Assembly (NCBI RefSeq): GCF_019402445.1
Contig: NZ_SRZM01000117.1
Span: forward strand, 1-21,043
DNA: 21,043 bases
Direction of reading: 5' to 3'
Origin: Brachyspira pilosicoli
Lineage (GTDB): Bacteria > Spirochaetota > Brachyspiria > Brachyspirales > Brachyspiraceae
Numbering within the stretch: position 1 is the first letter of the stretch; the number at the start of each line of letters is the position of its first letter. This document shows positions 286 through 13,594 of this stretch, in pieces. The notes beneath the pieces were generated by a model. That model did no database searches, was not told the origin of the DNA, and saw only the letters and a list, made by a program, of their open reading frames with translations. The position numbers were made by a program, and so were the translations under genes.

Positions 286-549
286 ATGTGTAAAGTATTG
301 GTGGAATTTATAAATACCTGTCCTACCTGCGATGGGTATTCATCATATTTAAAAGAACTTCAAGAAACGTATAAAGATAAGATAGAAGTAAAACTCTACT
401 ACGCAGGGAAAGATTTTGATTATTTAGCAAAATACGGAATGGTAGACAGAGGTACATTGATTATAAATGAAAAAAACAGATATGATGTGTTAAGCAAGAA
501 GCTAATAGAACAAGAAATTAAAAAAGCTATAGAAGCACAAAACTCTTAA
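286..549 (+). CDS. saoT: Thioredoxin-like protein with CPTC motif (SaoT-like)
   Basis: This is an 87-residue, single-domain thioredoxin-fold protein with no signal peptide, so it is probably cytoplasmic. The redox or metal-binding pair is C12-P-T-C15 near the end of the first beta strand, and there is a further Cys at position 2. It is shorter than classical thioredoxin (about 105 residues) and resembles the small thioredoxins found beside ArsP/SO_0444 permeases. AAGGA at 275-279 supports the ATG at 286. It opens the operon, 14 bp before the efflux permease. In the SAO system a thioredoxin-like (seleno)protein called SaoT holds this place; here both active positions are Cys. The fold and motif are clear. 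The role, reducing or passing on thiol-bound metal, is inferred from context, and the symbol is assigned from memory of the SAO gene set. Confidence 0.75.
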   Translation: MCKVLVEFINTCPTCDGYSSYLKELQETYKDKIEVKLYYAGKDFDYLAKYGMVDRGTLIINEKNRYDVLSKKLIEQEIKKAIEAQNS

Positions 550-563
550 ATGGAAATAAAAAT

Positions 564-1673
564 ATGATAATGCGTTTTTTGTATGTATTTTGGGACTTTC
601 TTGTTATAAGTTCAGAATGGATTGTTATAAGCTTAATATTATCTGGTATAATACATGCTTTTGTTCGTCCGCAGGTGCTTCAAAAATCTATAGGCAATAA
701 AAAAATATCCTCTCTAATAAAGACAACCATATCAGGAGCAATACTTCCTATATGCAGTTGCGGAGTGCTTCCATTGGCATTAAGTTTATATAGAACAGGT
801 GCATATTTAGGACCTACCCTTTCTTTTTTGGTGGCAACTCCAATAATTAACCCTGCTGCAATAATAGTGGCTTTTGCTATGCTTGGAAAAGAGGTTACTT
901 TTATATATATTTTATGCGGTATATTTTTGCCTTTAATAATAGGAATCTTAGGAAATATTTTTGGCGGAAAAGAATTAATTGCTCCTGAAGTTTTAAAGCT
1001 TCAAAGTATTAATATAAAAATTCCAGAAAACATTTATATAGATAAAACTCCTTGGTACAAAAAATTATATAACGGCATATTATGGGGCTTTAATAATCTA
1101 GGAATAGAAATAAGCAGATTTATATTAGTGGGTACTTTATTTGGGGCTATTTTATTAACAGTAGTGCCTCAATCATTTGTTATGCAGTATTTAAGTAACC
1201 CTAAATTAGTTTCTATTATAGGTATAACATTAGTAGGATGCATGATGTATGTGTGTGCTCTAGGGCATATTCCTTTTATTGCTGCTTTAATATCTGCAGG
1301 TGCTTCACCAGGTATAGCTATTACTTTTTTAATTACAGGTGTTGCTACAAATATATCTGAATTAATAAGCATATATAAACTAATAGGAAAAAGAACTTTA
1401 ATAATATATCTTTTCTCTATGCTTTTCTTTGGCATATTGATAGGATACATTACAAATATTTTATTGGCTAATAATTTTACACCAATATTTGATTTATCAA
1501 GTTCAAGCAAGCAAATAGAATTAGCAAATAATATAAATATTACTTTTCCAGATTGGTTCAAAAATATATGTGCTGTTGTGGTGTTGTTTATGGGGCTTTA
1601 TTCATGGTTTATGATCATAGTTAAAAAAATAAAGATTTTGCTAAATAATAAAGGAAAAGAAGTTCAATGTTGA
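564..1673 (+). CDS. saoE: SO_0444/ArsP-type metal efflux permease (SaoE-like)
   Basis: This 369-residue polytopic inner-membrane protein has about eight to ten hydrophobic segments, arranged as two halves joined by a hydrophilic stretch near residues 135-170. It carries the family signature I-C64-S-C66-G-V-L-P-L at the end of a helix, then SFLVATPIINP. The second half has a matching Cys-containing helix (VGCMMYVCALGH) followed by ISAGASPG. This pattern belongs to the DUF318/ArsP_1 permease family, whose members export thiol-binding metals or organoarsenicals. Two ATG codons (564, 570) could start translation, with only a weak GGAAA upstream. Its TGA stop overlaps the start of the next gene (ATGTTGA at 1667-1673), which suggests translational coupling. 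It is the only clear exporter in the operon and so the likely exit route for the metal product. The family is solid; the substrate is inferred. Confidence 0.8.
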   Translation: MIMRFLYVFWDFLVISSEWIVISLILSGIIHAFVRPQVLQKSIGNKKISSLIKTTISGAILPICSCGVLPLALSLYRTGAYLGPTLSFLVATPIINPAAIIVAFAMLGKEVTFIYILCGIFLPLIIGILGNIFGGKELIAPEVLKLQSINIKIPENIYIDKTPWYKKLYNGILWGFNNLGIEISRFILVGTLFGAILLTVVPQSFVMQYLSNPKLVSIIGITLVGCMMYVCALGHIPFIAALISAGASPGIAITFLITGVATNISELISIYKLIGKRTLIIYLFSMLFFGILIGYITNILLANNFTPIFDLSSSSKQIELANNINITFPDWFKNICAVVVLFMGLYSWFMIIVKKIKILLNNKGKEVQC

Positions 1674-2113
1674 GAATGCTTTTTGCTTTATGCTTTTTTG
1701 TGTTTATCTCATGCAACGATAACACTGAATATATAAAAAATGCAGAAGGCATAAATAATAAAGAGCTCTACAAAGAGTATATAAAAAAATATTCTGATAA
1801 GGAGTTATTAACTTTTTTGGAGGGAGATTTGAACGGAGATAATACAGATGACTTAATAATAATATATAAAGAATCTGAATATTCAAACAAATTAATTGGT
1901 ATATATAAAGATTCTAATAAAATATTAATGACTACTCCAATACCAGCACCTATAGAAAATTACACAATCAAATTTTATAACATAGATGAAAAAGTACCAA
2001 ATGAAATTTTAGTGTCTGGTAAAAAGGGAGCTAATATAGGTTTTGCTGTTTACAGACTTGAAAATGGAGAATTAATAAGCTTATTTGAAAACGGCATGGA
2101 AAAATGCTGCTAA
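1667..2113 (+). CDS. saoC: Small lipoprotein ending in Cys-Cys-COOH (SaoC-like)
   Basis: This is a 148-residue exported lipoprotein. A hydrophobic signal ends in the lipobox F-I-S-C16, so the mature protein should be anchored on the outer face of the inner membrane or in the outer membrane. An acidic segment near residues 50-62 (GDLNGDNTDDL) resembles an FG-GAP/EF-hand-like calcium loop. The last residues are E-K-C147-C148 followed by TAA, so the protein ends in a free vicinal Cys pair suited to binding a soft metal. The gene overlaps the permease stop by 7 nt and ends 31 nt before the next start. An alternative ATG at 1676 would give nearly the same signal peptide. SAO loci contain a small protein with a C-terminal Cys-Cys or Cys-Sec tail (SaoC); this would be an all-cysteine form. 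Metal binding is inferred. Confidence 0.7.
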   Translation: MLRMLFALCFFVFISCNDNTEYIKNAEGINNKELYKEYIKKYSDKELLTFLEGDLNGDNTDDLIIIYKESEYSNKLIGIYKDSNKILMTTPIPAPIENYTIKFYNIDEKVPNEILVSGKKGANIGFAVYRLENGELISLFENGMEKCC

Positions 2114-2144
2114 ATATAAATCAAAAAAATATAAGGAGAAAAAA

Positions 2145-3317
2145 ATGAAAAAAGTTGTAATTATTTTTTCTATGATTGCTTTCATCATTTCATGTGGCGG
2201 AAGTGATAATGCATCTAAAACAACAGAAACTTCTATTTCAGAAGATGTACAAGCTATAGTTGATGACTATAATTTGGAAGAGTTAAGCGATGCAGACAAA
2301 AAATACAAAATTAATTTAGGTTATTATAACTGCGACCATATGACAGCAGCTTGTGTCGGAGAAGATACTGGAATATTTAAAGCATTAGGTTTAAATGTTA
2401 CAGTTACAGGAAATGGTAATGTACCAGAGGCTATGAGTGCTGGACAAATGGATATGGCTTATGCTGGTTTTACAACTACTTTAAATGCTGTAAAAAATAA
2501 AGTTCCTCTTTTTATAGCGGCAGAAAATCATACAGGAGGAGCTGAGTATTTTGTTGTTTCTAAAGCAATAGAAAAGCCTGAAGATTTATTAAACAAAAAA
2601 ATATCTATGGGAGCTAATGCAGAAACTGAAAATCTAAACTGGGCAGAATGGACAGAGCAATTAAATATACCAAGAGATACTACTTATTATGAAAACTTTT
2701 CTATGAGTGATTCTGATGCATATTTTGCATTTAAGTTAGGACAGCTTGATGGATACGGTGCATGCGACCCTTGGGGTTCTATGGCAGAATATGAAAACAC
2801 TGGTAAAATATTAAAAAGACAAAACACAGACAGAGAAATTGATGGTCATGGTACTTGCTGTAAAGTTTGTATGAATTATAACTTTGCTAAAGCTCACCCA
2901 AAATTGGCAGAGAGAATACTTCTTGCTCATGTTATGTCTATAGAATATATGTATCTTCACCCTTACAAAGCAGCAGAAATATTTGCTGAAAATTATAATG
3001 TTCCTTTGGAAGTTGGCCTTATGACTTTATGGAAAAAACTCAATGAAGAAGGAAGAACTATCACTTGGAAATTAAACAGAGAATACGTTCATAATCAAAT
3101 GAAAACTATGAAGAGATTAGGTATAAGAGATGATATTAATTCTCTTAATATAGATGATTATATTGACTTATCTTATTTTGAAAATTCAGGTGCTAAAGAT
3201 TTTGATGTATTTATTAAAGAACAAGTTGATCCAATATTCCCTCTTGGCATGAGTTATAAAGATTGGAGAGCTAAAGCAGTAGAGATAGATAATATTAAAG
3301 AAGAACCTAAAGCATAA
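2145..3317 (+). CDS. Cys-rich ABC substrate-binding lipoprotein, NMT1/SsuA type
   Basis: This 390-residue lipoprotein has a signal peptide ending I-I-S-C17, then an acidic linker and a two-lobed periplasmic-binding fold of the nitrate/sulfonate/taurine (NMT1/THI5, SsuA) type. Typical elements are G-x-F-K-A-L-G near residues 76-82, MSAGQMDMAYAG near 97-108, and a helical C-terminal part (HPYKAAEIFAENYNVP). The ATG at 2145 is chosen because AAGGAG at 2133-2138 precedes it and a signal peptide follows directly; the longer frame from 2085 has neither. Apart from the lipid Cys it contains C63, C70, C207, C238, C239 and C242, including an H-G-T-C-C-K-V-C cluster, which is unusual for an exported sulfonate binder and fits a soft-metal or thiol ligand. 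It could be the SaoB component or an extra binding protein alongside the 275-residue one downstream; I cannot decide from memory. Confidence 0.8.
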   Translation: MKKVVIIFSMIAFIISCGGSDNASKTTETSISEDVQAIVDDYNLEELSDADKKYKINLGYYNCDHMTAACVGEDTGIFKALGLNVTVTGNGNVPEAMSAGQMDMAYAGFTTTLNAVKNKVPLFIAAENHTGGAEYFVVSKAIEKPEDLLNKKISMGANAETENLNWAEWTEQLNIPRDTTYYENFSMSDSDAYFAFKLGQLDGYGACDPWGSMAEYENTGKILKRQNTDREIDGHGTCCKVCMNYNFAKAHPKLAERILLAHVMSIEYMYLHPYKAAEIFAENYNVPLEVGLMTLWKKLNEEGRTITWKLNREYVHNQMKTMKRLGIRDDINSLNIDDYIDLSYFENSGAKDFDVFIKEQVDPIFPLGMSYKDWRAKAVEIDNIKEEPKA

Positions 3318-3339
3318 AAATTATAAGCAGGAAATAAAG

Positions 3340-4167
3340 ATGAGGCATATAATAAAGAGAAACAAATATATCATTGTATTTAGTATAATTTTTGTTATAT
3401 GCTTTATTTTATTTCAGAATTATAAAAACTCTTTAGATAAAAAAGATACAATAACTATAGCATGCGGAAATGATGCTTCTGGAATGCTTTTTGATTATAT
3501 AATAAATACTAAAAAAAATTCTAATATAGAGTTTTCAAATATTGATTATATACAGTTTTTGGATTGCTGCGGTTCTCAGGCTGAATTTGCTTTTATATCT
3601 GGAAGAGTTGATATGGCAGTATTATGTCCAGATGCGGCTTTTCAATTAACATCTATAGACACTAATTATTATATAGTAGATTCTATAGTAAAAGGCTCTA
3701 ATATATTAGTTTATTATAATGAAAGCTATGATGATGATAATATAAAACCAAAAAATATTGGATATATGAATAAAAGACTTCTTCAAGAGATATTGTTAAA
3801 AGAGAAGTATACAAATTCTAATTATTATCCTATGCTTTCAACTGCATTGCCTTATGCTTTAGAAAAGAAAACTGTTGATGCTGTATTAATTGATATTATT
3901 TTAGCTTTAAAAATAAAAGAAGCAAGGTTTAAAAAAATAGATACTGAAGAAGTTGATTATTATTTGGTGGCATCAAAAAAATTAAAAGATACTTTAATGC
4001 TTAATAATTTTATAAAAGCTTACAATGAAGCGGTAAATGATATTGAAAATGAAGCTATATTGTCAAATATGCTTACTCATTATTTAGATATTTCAAATTC
4101 ACAAGGAGAGATAAAAACATGGAAAACAATGGGAGTCAAGTTCCTCAAAATAAAAGCAGAGTCATAA
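3340..4167 (+). CDS. saoB: Membrane-anchored binding-type protein with Cys-Cys motif (SaoB candidate)
   Basis: The protein has 275 residues. One N-terminal hydrophobic helix (about residues 9-26) lacks a convincing lipobox, so it is probably an uncleaved anchor with the rest outside. The body looks like a divergent two-lobed periplasmic-binding domain: ITIACGNDASGM near residues 38-49, a short segment with D-C76-C77-G-S-Q, then F-I-S-G-R-V-D-M-A-V-L-C96-P-D, the usual place where such proteins report on a solute. Other Cys are at 21 and 42. A weak CAGGAAA precedes the ATG. The 3' end overlaps the ABC permease gene by 49 nt. SAO loci have an ABC substrate-binding (seleno)protein SaoB; the Cys-Cys pair and the position directly before the permease favour this gene, but the symbol is tentative because the Cys-rich lipoprotein upstream could also claim it. 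Confidence 0.6.
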   Translation: MRHIIKRNKYIIVFSIIFVICFILFQNYKNSLDKKDTITIACGNDASGMLFDYIINTKKNSNIEFSNIDYIQFLDCCGSQAEFAFISGRVDMAVLCPDAAFQLTSIDTNYYIVDSIVKGSNILVYYNESYDDDNIKPKNIGYMNKRLLQEILLKEKYTNSNYYPMLSTALPYALEKKTVDAVLIDIILALKIKEARFKKIDTEEVDYYLVASKKLKDTLMLNNFIKAYNEAVNDIENEAILSNMLTHYLDISNSQGEIKTWKTMGVKFLKIKAES

Positions 4168-4946
4168 ATTTAGGTAATGCTGGAAACAGTTTATTTATGA
4201 AGTTTTATAGTGTTTCTGTACTTTTAGCTATTATGATAATTTGGTATTTTCTTGCAAAAAAGATAGATAATAATTTACTTCTTCCAGATTTTATTTTAAC
4301 TTGCAAAGAGTTTTTTAAATCTTGGATAGATTCTTATACAGTACAAAATTTACTTATAACATTAGAGCGAGTATTTAGAGGTTTTCTTATAGCCTGCATA
4401 ATAGGTCTTCCATTAGGACTTATCATGGGGTATTCAAAGCCTATACTTTTGGCTGTATCACCAATAATAAACTCAATAAGACAAGTACCAATAATGGCAT
4501 GGATTCCATTAGCTATAGTGTGGTTTGGACTTGGTGATGGTCCTACAATATTTTTAATTACTATGAGTGCAATATTCCCACTTATAATAAACACAATAGA
4601 TGGAGTGAGAGGAATAGACCCTAATTATATTAATGCAGCAAGAAGTATGGGAGCAAAAAATATAGACATAATGCTTGATATAATTTTACCTGGTGCTTTG
4701 CCTTCATTTCTTACAGGATGCAGACTTGCTTTAGGACTTGGTTGGATGAGTGTAATATGTGCAGAGTTTATAGCTACAAGTAAGGGTTTTGGATTTATAT
4801 TGGTAGAAGCTCAGCAGAGGCTTGAGACACCTAAGCTTTATGCTCTTATGATAGTGTCTGCTCTTATTGGATTTAGTATGGATAGAATATTAATTATATT
4901 AGAAAAATTACTTACTTCTTGGAGATTTAAAAATGGCAATTCTTGA
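4119..4946 (+). CDS. saoP: ABC transporter permease, SsuC/TauC type (SaoP-like)
   Basis: This 275-residue inner-membrane permease has about six hydrophobic segments and belongs to the binding-protein-dependent (BPD_transp_1) family. The cytoplasmic EAA loop that contacts the ATPase is visible as INAARSMGAKN near residues 168-178, followed by ILPGALPSF. The segment SIRQVPIMAWIPLAIVWFGLG is typical of SsuC/TauC/ThiX-type permeases for sulfonates, nitrate or thiamine precursors. AAGGAG at 4103-4108 supports the ATG at 4119, even though this start lies inside the preceding gene. The stop (TGA, 4944-4946) overlaps the ATPase start by 14 nt, so permease and ATPase are likely coupled in translation. 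No other permease occurs in the operon, so it probably forms a homodimer served by the upstream binding protein(s). The family call is firm; the substrate is inferred from neighbours. Confidence 0.85.
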   Translation: MENNGSQVPQNKSRVINLGNAGNSLFMKFYSVSVLLAIMIIWYFLAKKIDNNLLLPDFILTCKEFFKSWIDSYTVQNLLITLERVFRGFLIACIIGLPLGLIMGYSKPILLAVSPIINSIRQVPIMAWIPLAIVWFGLGDGPTIFLITMSAIFPLIINTIDGVRGIDPNYINAARSMGAKNIDIMLDIILPGALPSFLTGCRLALGLGWMSVICAEFIATSKGFGFILVEAQQRLETPKLYALMIVSALIGFSMDRILIILEKLLTSWRFKNGNS

Positions 4947-5715
4947 AGTTAAAAATGTATGCAAATCTTTTAAGGTTTCAAAAAAAGCTCCTGAAGTTGA
5001 AGTATTAAGAAACATTAATTTTAATATAGAAAAGGGAGAGTTTGTAACTTTGCTTGGACCTTCAGGCTGCGGTAAAACAACACTTCTTACTATGATAGGC
5101 GGTTTTCAAAATCCTAGTTCTGGAGAGATATTACTTGAGGGTGAGAAAATAGAAAGACCTTCTTCTGAAAGGGGATATGTTTTTCAAAATTATGCTTTAT
5201 TTCCTTGGATGAATGTTGAAAAAAACATACTTTATTCGCTTAAATTTTCAAAGATGAATAAAGAAGAAAAAAAGAAAAGATTAGAAGAGCTCCTTGAAAT
5301 GTCGCATCTTAAAGGTCATGAAAAAAAGTATCCTATATCTCTTTCTGGGGGAATGCAGCAGAGGGTTGCTGTTGTAAGGGCATTAGCACCTAATCCAAAA
5401 ATACTTCTTTTAGATGAACCTCTTGGTGCTATAGATTTACAGATGAGAGAACATATGCAAAAAGAGCTGCTACAATTAGTTAAAGAAAGTAAAAGCACTG
5501 TATTGATGGTTACTCATGATGTATCTGAGGCTGTTTATATGAGTGATAGAGTTATTGTTATGAGCTTAAACAAAGGAGAAATTGTTGCTGATATAAAAAT
5601 AGATTTAAAGCACCCAAGAGAAAGAGACAGCATCGAATATATAGAACATGTTAGAGAACTTAGTAATAGTGTTAAAAAAGCTTTTATCAATGAAGCGGCT
5701 ATTGATAAAAGTTAA
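4933..5715 (+). CDS. saoA: ABC transporter ATP-binding protein, SsuB/TauB type (SaoA-like)
   Basis: This 260-residue cytoplasmic ATPase drives the importer. All nucleotide-binding motifs are intact: Walker A G-P-S-G-C-G-K-T-T at residues 42-50, Q-loop V-F-Q-N near 83-86, signature LSGGMQQR at 137-144, Walker B ILLLDEP at 157-163, D-loop GAIDLQ, and switch His195 in V-T-H-D. The L-F-P-W-M-N-V after the Q-loop is typical of the nitrate/sulfonate/taurine subfamily. GGAG at 4921-4924 precedes the ATG. It follows the permease with a 14-nt overlap and lies 31 nt before the MerB-like gene, so import and lysis are encoded together. The call is secure at family level; the Sao assignment comes from context. 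Confidence 0.88.
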   Translation: MAILEVKNVCKSFKVSKKAPEVEVLRNINFNIEKGEFVTLLGPSGCGKTTLLTMIGGFQNPSSGEILLEGEKIERPSSERGYVFQNYALFPWMNVEKNILYSLKFSKMNKEEKKKRLEELLEMSHLKGHEKKYPISLSGGMQQRVAVVRALAPNPKILLLDEPLGAIDLQMREHMQKELLQLVKESKSTVLMVTHDVSEAVYMSDRVIVMSLNKGEIVADIKIDLKHPRERDSIEYIEHVRELSNSVKKAFINEAAIDKS

Positions 5716-5746
5716 TATAAATATTTTTTAGAGGATTTAATTTATT

Positions 5747-6367
5747 ATGTTTGATTCAGATTTTATGAACAAATATGGCGTGTCTGATAAGTATCATAAC
5801 TTAGATTCAGATATGCAAAACGCAAGGTTAAGGTTAATTGATAAAGTAATAGAAACAGGATGCACCATCAGTAGAGAAGAAGCTATAAAAATATGTGGCG
5901 ATGAAAAATTGTACAATTCTTTAATAGAGAAAGAAATTGTTACTATGAGTGGTGATTCTATTGCATTTCTTTATCCTGTATCAGCTATGGAAACTAATCA
6001 CAGAGTAAAACTTTCGGACGGAAGAGAGTTTTGTTCTATGTGTGCTATTGATGCTTTAGGCTCTTATAGTTTATTTCATCAAGATACTGAAATTAATTCT
6101 ATATGCTCTCAAACTGGAGAGAAGATATATGTAAGAATTAAAGACAGACAAATAGTAGAACATTCGCCTAAAGATATTCATGTTATTCATGTTGATCTTA
6201 ATAAAAACAAAAACTGGGCTAGCACTTGCTGAAATATTATGAATTTCTTTGGTTCAAAGAATGATATGAATGAGTGGCTTAAAAATCAAGAGGTTGATAA
6301 CAATACAACATATCTTTTAGATTTACAAACCGCTTTTAAAGTAGCAACTGCTATATTTCAGATATAA
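5747..6367 (+). CDS. saoL: MerB-like organometallic lyase, putative selenoprotein (TGA read as Sec)
   Basis: The open frame from ATG 5747 (GAGGA at 5731-5735) meets TGA at 6230-6232 after 161 codons, but stays in frame for 44 more codons to TAA at 6365-6367, giving 206 residues, close to the roughly 212 of MerB. The N-terminal part has winged-helix character. The core has F-C96-S-M-C99-A-I-D102-A-L, matching the MerB W-C-A-L-D motif with its catalytic Cys96 and Asp99, and C120 in the place of MerB Cys117. With the same +3 offset, MerB catalytic Cys159 falls on residue 162, the TGA codon. The downstream residues N-I-M-N-F-F-G-S and N-E-W-L, then a leucine-rich tail, are the expected MerB ending. 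The enzyme would cleave carbon-metal bonds in the cytoplasm. A C-terminal truncation at TGA would lose an essential residue. Selenium incorporation is inferred. Confidence 0.8.
6230..6232 (+). other. In-frame TGA, probable selenocysteine codon
   Basis: The codon sequence is GCT-AGC-ACT-TGC-TGA-AAT-ATT-ATG, so TGA is residue 162, directly after Cys161. The family expects a Cys at this active-site position. Conserved MerB-like residues resume immediately after it, and the frame then stays open to TAA at 6365. A gene caller that does not model Sec will end the gene here. A nonsense mutation is the main alternative. Confidence 0.75.
6245..6261 (+). promoter_or_regulatory. Bacterial SECIS-like hairpin
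   Basis: TTCTTTG (6245-6251) pairs perfectly with CAAAGAA (6255-6261) around the loop GTT, or a GGTTC loop if the last G-C pair opens. The loop starts about 18-19 nt after the TGA and has G in the first positions. This fits the known pattern of bacterial SECIS elements, a short stem-loop 16-37 nt downstream with G near the start of the loop, which binds SelB. The 7-bp stem is mostly A-U, so it is only moderately stable. Confidence 0.6.
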
Positions 6368-12302: not shown

Positions 12303-13265
12303 ATGGATAATATATATGATTTAATTATAGTAGGAGGCGGCCCTGGAGGAATTGCTGCTGCTGTTGAGGCTGCTATACTTCAAATGAAAAAAGTGCTTCT
12401 TATAGAGAAAGGAGATAATCACTCTACTACTATTAGAAAGTTTTATAAAGATGATAAAAGAGTAGACAAAGATTATAAAGGTGAAGCTTTAGATTTGAAA
12501 GGCAACATTAAATTTGAAACTGCAACTAAAGGTGATGTATTAGATTTATTTAGCGAATGTTTATTTGGAAACTATATTGAAGCTATGTTTAATACTGAAG
12601 TTGAATCCATTAAAAAAAATGGCGAATATTTAGAAGTTACTACTGTTGATAATAAAACTTATACTTCTAAATATGTTGTAGCTTCCATTGGAAAAATGGG
12701 AAGACCTAATAGACCTGATTATAATATACCGCCTAGTTTGAATAATGTTGTAAACTTTAATATTTATAAATGCAAAGAAAATGAGAAAGTATTAGTAGTT
12801 GGAGGAGGAAACTCTGCTGTTGAGTATGCTTATCTTTTAGGTAAAGATAATGATGTTACAATTAATTATAGAAAGGCTGAATTTACAAGACCTAATGAAA
12901 AGAATTTAGAAACTATTAAAGAAGATATAGCGAGCGGTAAAGTAAAGCCAAGATTAGGTGTTGATATTAAATCTATAGAAGACAGTAGCGGAAAAGTATT
13001 GGTTCATTATGCTGATGGCATTGATGATACTTATGACAGGGTAATATATGCTTTAGGAGGAGTAGCTCCAATAGACTTCTTAAAAAGATGCGATATAGAG
13101 TTAGATGAAAGCGGTGTGCCTATAGTTAATGACAAACATGAAAGCTCTGTTAAAAACTTATTTATAGCTGGAGATATATTATATAAATCTGGCGGTTCTA
13201 TTGCTAAGGCTTTGAATGCTGGATTTGATATAGTTAAGTATGTAGATGAATTAATGAAAAAATAA
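12303..13265 (+). CDS. NAD(P)/FAD-dependent oxidoreductase, thioredoxin-reductase fold without CxxC (YpdA-like)
   Basis: This 320-residue cytoplasmic flavoprotein has an FAD-binding G-G-G-P-G-G at 11-16 followed by an acidic strand end (L-I-E-K), a second dinucleotide motif V-V-G-G-G-N-S-A at about 165-172, and a C-terminal FAD motif N-L-F-I-A-G-D. Length and order match class II thioredoxin reductases, but the redox-active CxxC is absent: the only cysteines are at about 86, 157 and in L-K-R-C-D. That resembles YpdA/Bdr proteins and related ferredoxin-NADP reductase-like proteins, which act on small disulfides without a Cys pair. It is well expressed by sequence criteria and sits 26 nt before the IIB-like gene. 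The electron acceptor is unknown. Confidence 0.75.
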   Translation: MDNIYDLIIVGGGPGGIAAAVEAAILQMKKVLLIEKGDNHSTTIRKFYKDDKRVDKDYKGEALDLKGNIKFETATKGDVLDLFSECLFGNYIEAMFNTEVESIKKNGEYLEVTTVDNKTYTSKYVVASIGKMGRPNRPDYNIPPSLNNVVNFNIYKCKENEKVLVVGGGNSAVEYAYLLGKDNDVTINYRKAEFTRPNEKNLETIKEDIASGKVKPRLGVDIKSIEDSSGKVLVHYADGIDDTYDRVIYALGGVAPIDFLKRCDIELDESGVPIVNDKHESSVKNLFIAGDILYKSGGSIAKALNAGFDIVKYVDELMKK

Positions 13266-13291
13266 TTTTATTAGAAGGAGTATAAATTAAT

Positions 13292-13594
13292 ATGTTAAAA
13301 GTACTTGCAGTTTGTGCTAATGGTTCTGGAACTAGTTTAATGATGGTAGAAAAAATTAAAAGAGTTTTAGAAAGTTTTGATATAAAAGACGTAAAGATAG
13401 AACATTCTGATTTGCAAAACAATAAAATAGATGAATACAATTTAATATTCTGCCCTTTTGCTTTTTTAGAAAAAGTAAAAGAATATGTAAAAGATGATAC
13501 TAAAATTATAGGCATCAAAAATATATTATCTGAAGAAGAGTTTAAAAGACAAATTATAGATTCAGGAAACTTAGAAGAATTAAAAAAATTATAA
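13292..13594 (+). CDS. Stand-alone PTS IIB component-like protein (ascorbate/lactose type)
   Basis: This small cytoplasmic protein of 100 residues begins V-L-A-V-C8-A-N-G-S-G-T-S-L-M-M, the phospho-cysteine P-loop of PTS IIB domains of the SgaB/UlaB and lactose/galactitol type. A second strand (N-L-I-F-C-P) and helix follow, as in the flavodoxin-like IIB fold. In a sugar PTS it would receive phosphate from IIA on Cys8 and pass it to the sugar on IIC. Neither IIA nor IIC lies in the window, and its partner gene is a flavoprotein. It could serve a remote transporter or a regulatory role. AAGGAG at 13275-13280 supports the start; a terminator follows. Confidence 0.75.
   Translation: MLKVLAVCANGSGTSLMMVEKIKRVLESFDIKDVKIEHSDLQNNKIDEYNLIFCPFAFLEKVKEYVKDDTKIIGIKNILSEEEFKRQIIDSGNLEELKKL

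What the first reader, a model, noticed from the sequence alone, without database searches (positions are those of the whole stretch)
5747..6367. MerB-like lyase gene with an in-frame TGA at the catalytic-cysteine position: probable new-style selenoprotein
Seen: the frame runs through TGA (6230-6232) and stays open for 44 codons that encode a MerB-like ending (N-I-M-N-F-F, N-E-W-L), for a total of 206 residues. C99, D102 and C120 align with MerB C96, D99 and C117 at offset +3, which puts MerB catalytic C159 on the TGA. Known: Sec often replaces redox or metal-binding Cys, and MerB needs this residue. Inferred: the gene encodes a selenocysteine lyase for carbon-metal bonds. Automated annotation would report a 161-residue protein missing its third catalytic residue.
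Basis: partly seen in the sequence, partly recalled or inferred. Interest (0 to 1): 0.95.

Follow-up and report, generated by a model that had tools for sequence, protein, structure and literature searches.

The report
Selenium-dependent MerB-like metal lyase, SaoL
A Brachyspira spirochete carries an operon whose MerB-like gene contains an in-frame UGA that is predicted to be read as selenocysteine at the metal-binding position; it belongs to SaoL, a family already listed as selenoproteins and likely used to break carbon-metal bonds, and genes in other spirochetes have UGA at both metal-binding positions.

Summary
The frame 5747-6367 has one TGA, at codon 162 (6230-6232), and the 44 codons after it are MerB-like. 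Selenocysteine is well supported. The genome has selA, selB, selD and a TCA-anticodon tRNA-Sec. All 15 SaoL copies found (11 Brachyspira, 4 from the class of Tissierella) have TGA at this column. A small G-loop hairpin follows at bSECIS distance in the 14 uninterrupted copies, though its controls are only moderate. Codon 162 aligns with MerB Cys159.

It is not a new selenoprotein family. The protein passes the NCBIfam cut-off for SaoL and ends a saoTECXBPA-L operon, and a 2026 review already lists SaoL as a selenoprotein with motif CU.

Two things I did not find in print, with two key papers not held. First, the sites in SaoT, SaoB and SaoP that are TGA in a Tissierella-class operon are Cys in Brachyspira, whereas SaoL keeps TGA throughout. 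Second, four genomes of other Spirochaetota carry MerB-like genes, below the SaoL and MerB equivalog cut-offs, with TGA at both MerB C96 and C159 columns; each genome has tRNA-Sec. Sec insertion, lyase activity and the metal remain untested.

The parts
286..549 (+). saoT, thioredoxin-like protein; CxxC here, no TGA
   Evidence: NF040730, 130.2 bits, cut-off 65; no in-frame stop
564..1673 (+). saoE, efflux transporter
   Evidence: NF040736, 497 bits, cut-off 325
1667..2113 (+). saoC, protein ending in Cys-Cys
   Evidence: NF040734, 163.8 bits, cut-off 80
2145..3317 (+). saoX, substrate-binding protein (start chosen at 2145; the listed ORF begins at 2085)
   Evidence: NF040735, 498.2 bits, cut-off 300
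3340..4167 (+). saoB, substrate-binding protein; Cys-Cys here, no TGA
   Evidence: NF040727, 324.5 bits, cut-off 140
4119..4946 (+). saoP, ABC permease
   Evidence: NF040733, 390.1 bits, cut-off 295
4933..5715 (+). saoA, ABC ATPase
   Evidence: NF040729, 370.2 bits, cut-off 360
5747..6367 (+). saoL, MerB-like protein of 206 residues with UGA at codon 162
   Evidence: NF040728, 190.5 bits, cut-off 140, over residues 14-161; PF03243 over 79-205
6230..6232 (+). in-frame TGA, predicted Sec codon, at the column of MerB Cys159
6245..6261 (+). bSECIS-like hairpin: 7 bp, 3-nt loop starting with G, 19 nt between TGA and loop
   Evidence: energy limit of the bSECIS model not met by this copy (-5.8 kcal/mol over 60 nt)

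Best explanation
The gene at 5747-6367 encodes SaoL, a MerB-like protein whose in-frame UGA at codon 162 is predicted to be decoded as selenocysteine at the position of MerB's mercury-binding Cys159. Ribosomes would read the UGA with tRNA-Sec and SelB, helped by the hairpin that begins 12 nt after it. The product would hold an organometal between C99 and U162, with D102 passing the proton, as in MerB; the more acidic selenolate would bind and release the metal more readily than a thiolate. SaoX, SaoB, SaoP and SaoA would import the compound, SaoL would split the carbon-metal bond, SaoT would keep the site reduced and SaoE would export the metal. Shown: the family, the operon, the Sec genes, the conserved TGA, the hairpin. 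Inferred: Sec insertion, the lyase reaction (about 0.55 on its own), the roles in the pathway, and the metal, which is unknown.
For: SaoL and seven further Sao families in one operon, all above their cut-offs. selC-selA-selB on one contig and selD on another, all over the cut-offs; ARAGORN calls the tRNA as tRNA-Sec with TCA. TGA at the same column in 15 of 15 SaoL copies: 11 of 26 genomes of the genus and 4 of 391 genomes of the class of Tissierella. MerB homology on both sides of the TGA; C99, D102, C120 invariant in ten Brachyspira copies and Tissierella. Hairpin in 14 of 14 uninterrupted copies, with one pair changed on both sides (U-A to C-G) in three of the four Tissierella-class copies. 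Synonymous and non-synonymous changes continue after the TGA much as before it. The same column is TGA again in four double-TGA relatives, with a similar hairpin. MerB C96, D99 and C159 as the mercury site: PMC4525700, passages.
Against: No direct evidence of Se or of activity. The hairpin is weak here: -5.8 kcal/mol over 60 nt, above the -7.5 limit quoted in PMC13188914, a limit met by 8 of 14 copies and by 38% of codon positions in window genes. My hairpin finder looked only inside the model's loop and distance limits, and 55% of background codons give some hairpin there, 4.4% one as stable as this. Synonymous shuffles are as stable in 1.7, 0.1, 0.1, 1.6 and 28.5% of cases in five copies, and stem length alone is not unusual. 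In the copy L017 the best fold is not this hairpin. No Rfam match. phmmer against MerB 1s6l shifts the site by one residue. The structure model is poor, pLDDT 53.8. No mer genes beside it, so mercury is not implied.
Confidence: 0.88

Rival explanations
1. UGA is a real stop: a 161-residue protein is made and the rest is a remnant.
For: The curated SaoL model ends at residue 161. In one Brachyspira genome the frame is broken at the site.
Against: After the TGA the protein sequence is conserved across Brachyspira and to Tissierella and matches MerB, and it includes the metal ligand of MerB.
Confidence: 0.05
2. UGA is read through with another residue (Trp or Cys), by a changed code or leaky decoding.
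For: Low-level misreading of UGA is known in bacteria (recalled).
Against: Three of 18 window genes end in TGA; the genome has a full Sec pathway; the column is Cys in MerB and MerB2, the usual Sec partner.
Confidence: 0.02
3. SaoL is a Sec protein but a metal chaperone or sensor, not a lyase: it passes a metal or metalloid to SaoE without breaking a carbon-metal bond.
For: No mer genes in the operon; many Sao proteins carry Cys or Sec where metal could bind; in two Tissierella-class genomes SaoL lies beside a double-cubane reductase, so the chemistry may differ.
Against: The proton donor D102 of MerB is kept in every SaoL aligned, which a plain chaperone would not need.
Confidence: 0.35

Closest known systems
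SaoL (NF040728), CU-motif selenoprotein of the Sao system
   Same: Family score above the cut-off, Cys-Sec motif, operon partners
   Different: In Brachyspira only SaoL has TGA; SaoT, SaoB and SaoP, which have TGA in one Tissierella-class operon, have Cys. The papers that I could read do not name Brachyspira for SaoL.
MerB, alkylmercury lyase (PDB 1s6l and others)
   Same: PF03243 domain; C96, D99, C117 columns kept
   Different: Sec at the C159 column; 67.3 bits against the MerB equivalog cut-off of 193; no mer operon
MerB2 (PDB 5c17)
   Same: Closest solved chain, E=4e-15 with the profile; its single Cys at this site aligns with codon 162
   Different: Cys, not Sec; low identity
Double-TGA MerB-like proteins of other Spirochaetota (L031, L033, L034, L036; found here)
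   Same: PF03243 at 50-87 bits, cut-off 27; TGA at the C159 column followed by a UUCUUC-type hairpin
   Different: A second TGA at the C96 column; 38-44 bits against the SaoL cut-off of 140; ten neighbouring genes scanned with Pfam show no mer or ABC-transport gene

Membership tests
SaoL (NF040728) | Score above the curated cut-off | tested here: met
   190.5 against 140; 10 of 10 members of A1 match
SaoL (NF040728) | Sao operon partners | tested here: met
   Seven partners, each over its cut-off
SaoL (NF040728) | Cys-Sec motif (CU) as listed in PMC13188914 | tested here: met
   TGC TGA at codons 161-162; motif
Bacterial selenoprotein | Sec machinery in the genome | tested here: met
   selA, selB, selC, selD over the cut-offs
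Bacterial selenoprotein | Conserved in-frame TGA in a Cys column | tested here: met
   15 of 15 SaoL copies; Cys in MerB2 and MerB
Bacterial selenoprotein | bSECIS: 3-9 nt loop, stem 4-16 bp, G in the first two loop positions, 16-37 nt spacing, MFE at or below -7.5 | tested here: inconclusive
   The first four are met in 14 of 14 but were built into the finder; MFE met in 8 of 14, not in this copy
Bacterial selenoprotein | Se present in the protein | not testable with these tools
   Needs 75Se labelling or mass spectrometry
MerB (alkylmercury lyase) | MerB domain | tested here: met
   PF03243, 103.2 bits, cut-off 27
MerB (alkylmercury lyase) | Score above a MerB equivalog cut-off | tested here: not met
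   67.3 against 193 and 59.3 against 200, so not filed as MerB
MerB (alkylmercury lyase) | C96, D99, C159 site | tested here: met
   C99, D102 and, with Sec for Cys, codon 162; one alignment is shifted by one residue
MerB (alkylmercury lyase) | Lyase activity on organomercury | not testable with these tools
   Needs an assay

The most novel reading that the evidence does not exclude
The MerB fold has a selenium-using wing. SaoL carries Sec at the Cys159 position in every copy seen, while other Sao proteins swap Sec for Cys, so this selenolate is the one that cannot be given up. A second, unnamed branch in other Spirochaetota carries Sec at both metal-binding positions (MerB C96 and C159), which would be a two-selenolate metal site in a carbon-metal lyase fold.
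Probability: 0.6. Interest if true: 0.75.

Novelty: new member of a known kind. Interest (0 to 1): 0.42.

Why it matters
It places a UGA-containing MerB-like gene, with its whole operon, in Brachyspira, and shows that the public SaoL model stops one residue before the UGA, so the predicted metal ligand and the last 44 residues lie outside it. It makes a question testable: why would the Cys159 position of a MerB-like enzyme keep selenium when other Sao proteins do with sulphur? The double-TGA relatives would give a natural series on one fold (no, one, two Sec) for comparing selenolate with thiolate in breaking metal-carbon bonds.

Tried and rejected
The protein database search (search for homologous proteins) failed in four tries, so the Sec/Cys count rests on genome searches, which draw samples of large groups. 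AlphaFold with a 7-row alignment gave a poor model (pLDDT 53.8), and I ran no fold search on it. Rfam matched nothing at the gathering score; the one weaker match, snR77 at 29.9 bits against 50, overlaps the TGA region and is taken as chance. The viral-contig scan and the phage records gave no relative; the 79 plasmid records matched are all below 60% identity, and those listed by name are MerB-type genes or unannotated (30 of 79 listed). I considered and rejected decay of the C-terminus, a changed genetic code, and a new family.

Literature: PMC9879109 (Haft and Gwadz 2023) and PMC12013261 (Haft and Tolstoy 2025) are not held, so I cannot exclude that they describe Brachyspira SaoL or double-Sec MerB-like proteins. 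Searches. Seen as passages: PMC13188914, PMC9312934, PMC5029168, PMC12013277, PMC4525700, PMC5330540, PMC2897892. PMC2398784 was searched for three terms and held none of them (19). Other papers: search listings only.

Full report
What is there. The window lies in a genome of 2.47 Mb in 463 contigs. From 286 to 6367 on the + strand lie eight genes, each above its NCBIfam cut-off: saoT, saoE, saoC, saoX, saoB, saoP, saoA and saoL. SaoL is the finding. Its frame runs from ATG at 5747 to TAA at 6365-6367 with one TGA at codon 162, 6230-6232. None of the other 17 window genes checked has an in-frame stop, and three of the 18 end in TGA.

The MerB match spans the TGA. Pfam MerB covers residues 79-205 (E=1.3e-29, TGA entered as Cys). 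Against MerB2 (5c17) the Cys of that protein falls on codon 162 in two searches. In an eight-sequence alignment that includes a MerB-type protein of another spirochete (L035), codon 162 lies in one of six invariant columns. Against MerB 1s6l, phmmer opened a gap beside the site and shifted the pair by one; the gapless reading, anchored on the F-F that follows, puts C159 on codon 162. C96, D99 and C117 fall on C99, D102 and C120. C96, D99 and C159 are the mercury site modelled in PMC4525700 (passages).

The genome can make selenocysteine. tRNA-Sec, selA and selB follow each other on contig C50, and selD lies on C90, all over their cut-offs; ARAGORN gives the TCA anticodon. Papers report other selenoproteins in Brachyspira: glycine reductase genes in B. 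pilosicoli (PMC2897892, passages) and a thioredoxin-like family (PMC5330540, passages).

The TGA is conserved. Of 26 genomes of the genus, 11 hold SaoL and all 11 have the TGA; in one (G002) a short tandem duplication at the site breaks the frame. Of 392 Spirochaetota genomes, 16 match the SaoL model and 11 pass its cut-off, all from this genus. Tissierella creatinophila, 49% identical in the best segment, has the same TGA, with the end of saoA just upstream. Of 391 genomes of its class, 4 match, Tissierella included, each with one TGA. That makes 15 of 15, no Cys copy seen; the sample outside Brachyspira is small. Codon changes against the window copy after the TGA are of both kinds, as before it: for instance, for L013, 46 synonymous and 22 other changes in 150 codons before, 9 and 5 in 43 after; for the most distant copy, L017, 48 and 40 before, 6 and 11 after.

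The hairpin. In the 14 uninterrupted copies the best hairpin after the TGA has 6-7 pairs, a loop of 3-6 nt with a G in its first two positions, and 18-19 nt between TGA and loop. These lie inside the loop, stem and distance limits printed in PMC13188914, but my finder searched only within those limits. The stem UUCUUU/AAAGAA of Brachyspira becomes UUCUUC/GAAGAA in three of the four Tissierella-class copies, a change on both sides of one pair; in the fourth the stem lies in a shifted register. Part of this likeness is the conserved F-F coding. The energy limit (-7.5 kcal/mol) is met by 8 of 14 over 60 nt, not by this copy (-5.8; -9.9 if the stretch starts 9 nt upstream), and by 38% of codon positions in window genes. 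A hairpin as stable as this one follows 4.4% of 5420 codon positions. Synonymous shuffles, with this window's codon usage for all, are as stable in 1.7, 0.1, 0.1, 1.6 and 28.5% of cases in five copies; stem length alone is not unusual (18 to 100%). In L017 the best fold is another one. The hairpin is supporting evidence, not proof.

Sec in the rest of the operon. One Tissierella-class sao operon (L076) has TGA in saoT (at Cys12 of the window protein), saoB (Cys77), saoP (Cys214) and saoL; a second stretch (L078) has TGA in saoP and saoL. A third SaoL locus (L077) shows no match to saoT, saoE, saoC, saoX, saoB or saoP in 16 kb. In the six Brachyspira loci compared, saoT, saoE, saoC, saoX, saoB, saoP and saoA have no in-frame stop, and all six have it in saoL (one interrupted). 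So in this small sample Sec is exchanged for Cys elsewhere but kept in SaoL. PMC13188914 lists SaoT, SaoB, SaoC, SaoX, SaoP and SaoL as selenoproteins.

How it most likely works. By homology, an organometal would be bound by C99 and U162, D102 would protonate the carbon, and the metal would leave to thiols and then through SaoE. SaoX, SaoP and SaoA resemble sulphonate/taurine-type ABC importers. All of this is inferred. The main rival is a metal chaperone without bond breaking. Conservation of D102 speaks for a lyase; the lack of mer genes and, in two Tissierella-class genomes, a double-cubane reductase gene beside saoL leave the substrate open.

What is known. SaoL as a CU selenoprotein is in print: PMC13188914, table passage, citing Zhang and Gladyshev 2008 and Haft and Gwadz 2023. 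The text of the 2008 paper held in the library contains none of 'mercury', 'MerB' or 'lyase', and the 2023 paper is not held. PMC9312934 lists a MerB-like selenoprotein under the same accession. The window's copy is a new member of a known kind. The curated model ends at or one residue short of the residue before the UGA in the copies scanned.

The side finding. The Spirochaetota searches returned four MerB-like genes with two in-frame TGA at MerB Cys columns (L031, L033, L034, L036): one at the C96 column and one at the C159 column. L034 and others have a further TGA near the end that may be the true stop. They score 38-44 bits against the SaoL cut-off of 140 and 28-48 bits against the MerB cut-offs of 193 and 200, but 50-87 bits against the Pfam cut-off of 27. 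The four genomes have tRNA-Sec over the cut-off. The C159-column TGA is followed in 4 of 4 by a UUCUUC[C/U]-GGUC-[G/A]GAAGAA hairpin; the C96-column TGA by a 6-7 bp hairpin in 2 of 4 and only a weak 4-bp one in the other two. D99 is Asp in two of the four and Glu in the other two. A relative with Cys at both columns lies in one of the same genomes (L032 in G139). In the 46 genomes of their order, these four genomes alone match (the same 46 genomes). I found no paper on a MerB-like protein with two Sec residues, but two key papers are not held.

Noticed in passing
L031 (1207-1911 -), L036 (1180-1914 -), L033 (1216-1998 -), L034 (1190-1995 -): MerB-like genes of other Spirochaetota with in-frame TGA at both the C96 and C159 columns; all four genomes have tRNA-Sec.
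   Followed up: partly
L077 8715-10656; L078 6527-7693: A double-cubane-cluster anaerobic reductase (with an activase in L077) next to saoL in two Tissierella-class genomes.
   Followed up: no
L042 (B. alvinipulli locus; G002:C1 near 90450): SaoL frame broken by a short tandem duplication that repeats the UGA; could be real or an assembly error.
   Followed up: no
L076 2384-7646: A sao operon with TGA also in saoT, saoB and saoP, at sites that are Cys in Brachyspira.
   Followed up: partly
window 6185-6266: Sub-threshold Rfam match to an snR77 snoRNA over the TGA region, 29.9 bits against a gathering score of 50; taken as chance.
   Followed up: no
window 12303-13594: A thioredoxin-reductase-like FAD protein followed by a PTS IIB-like protein.
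   Followed up: no
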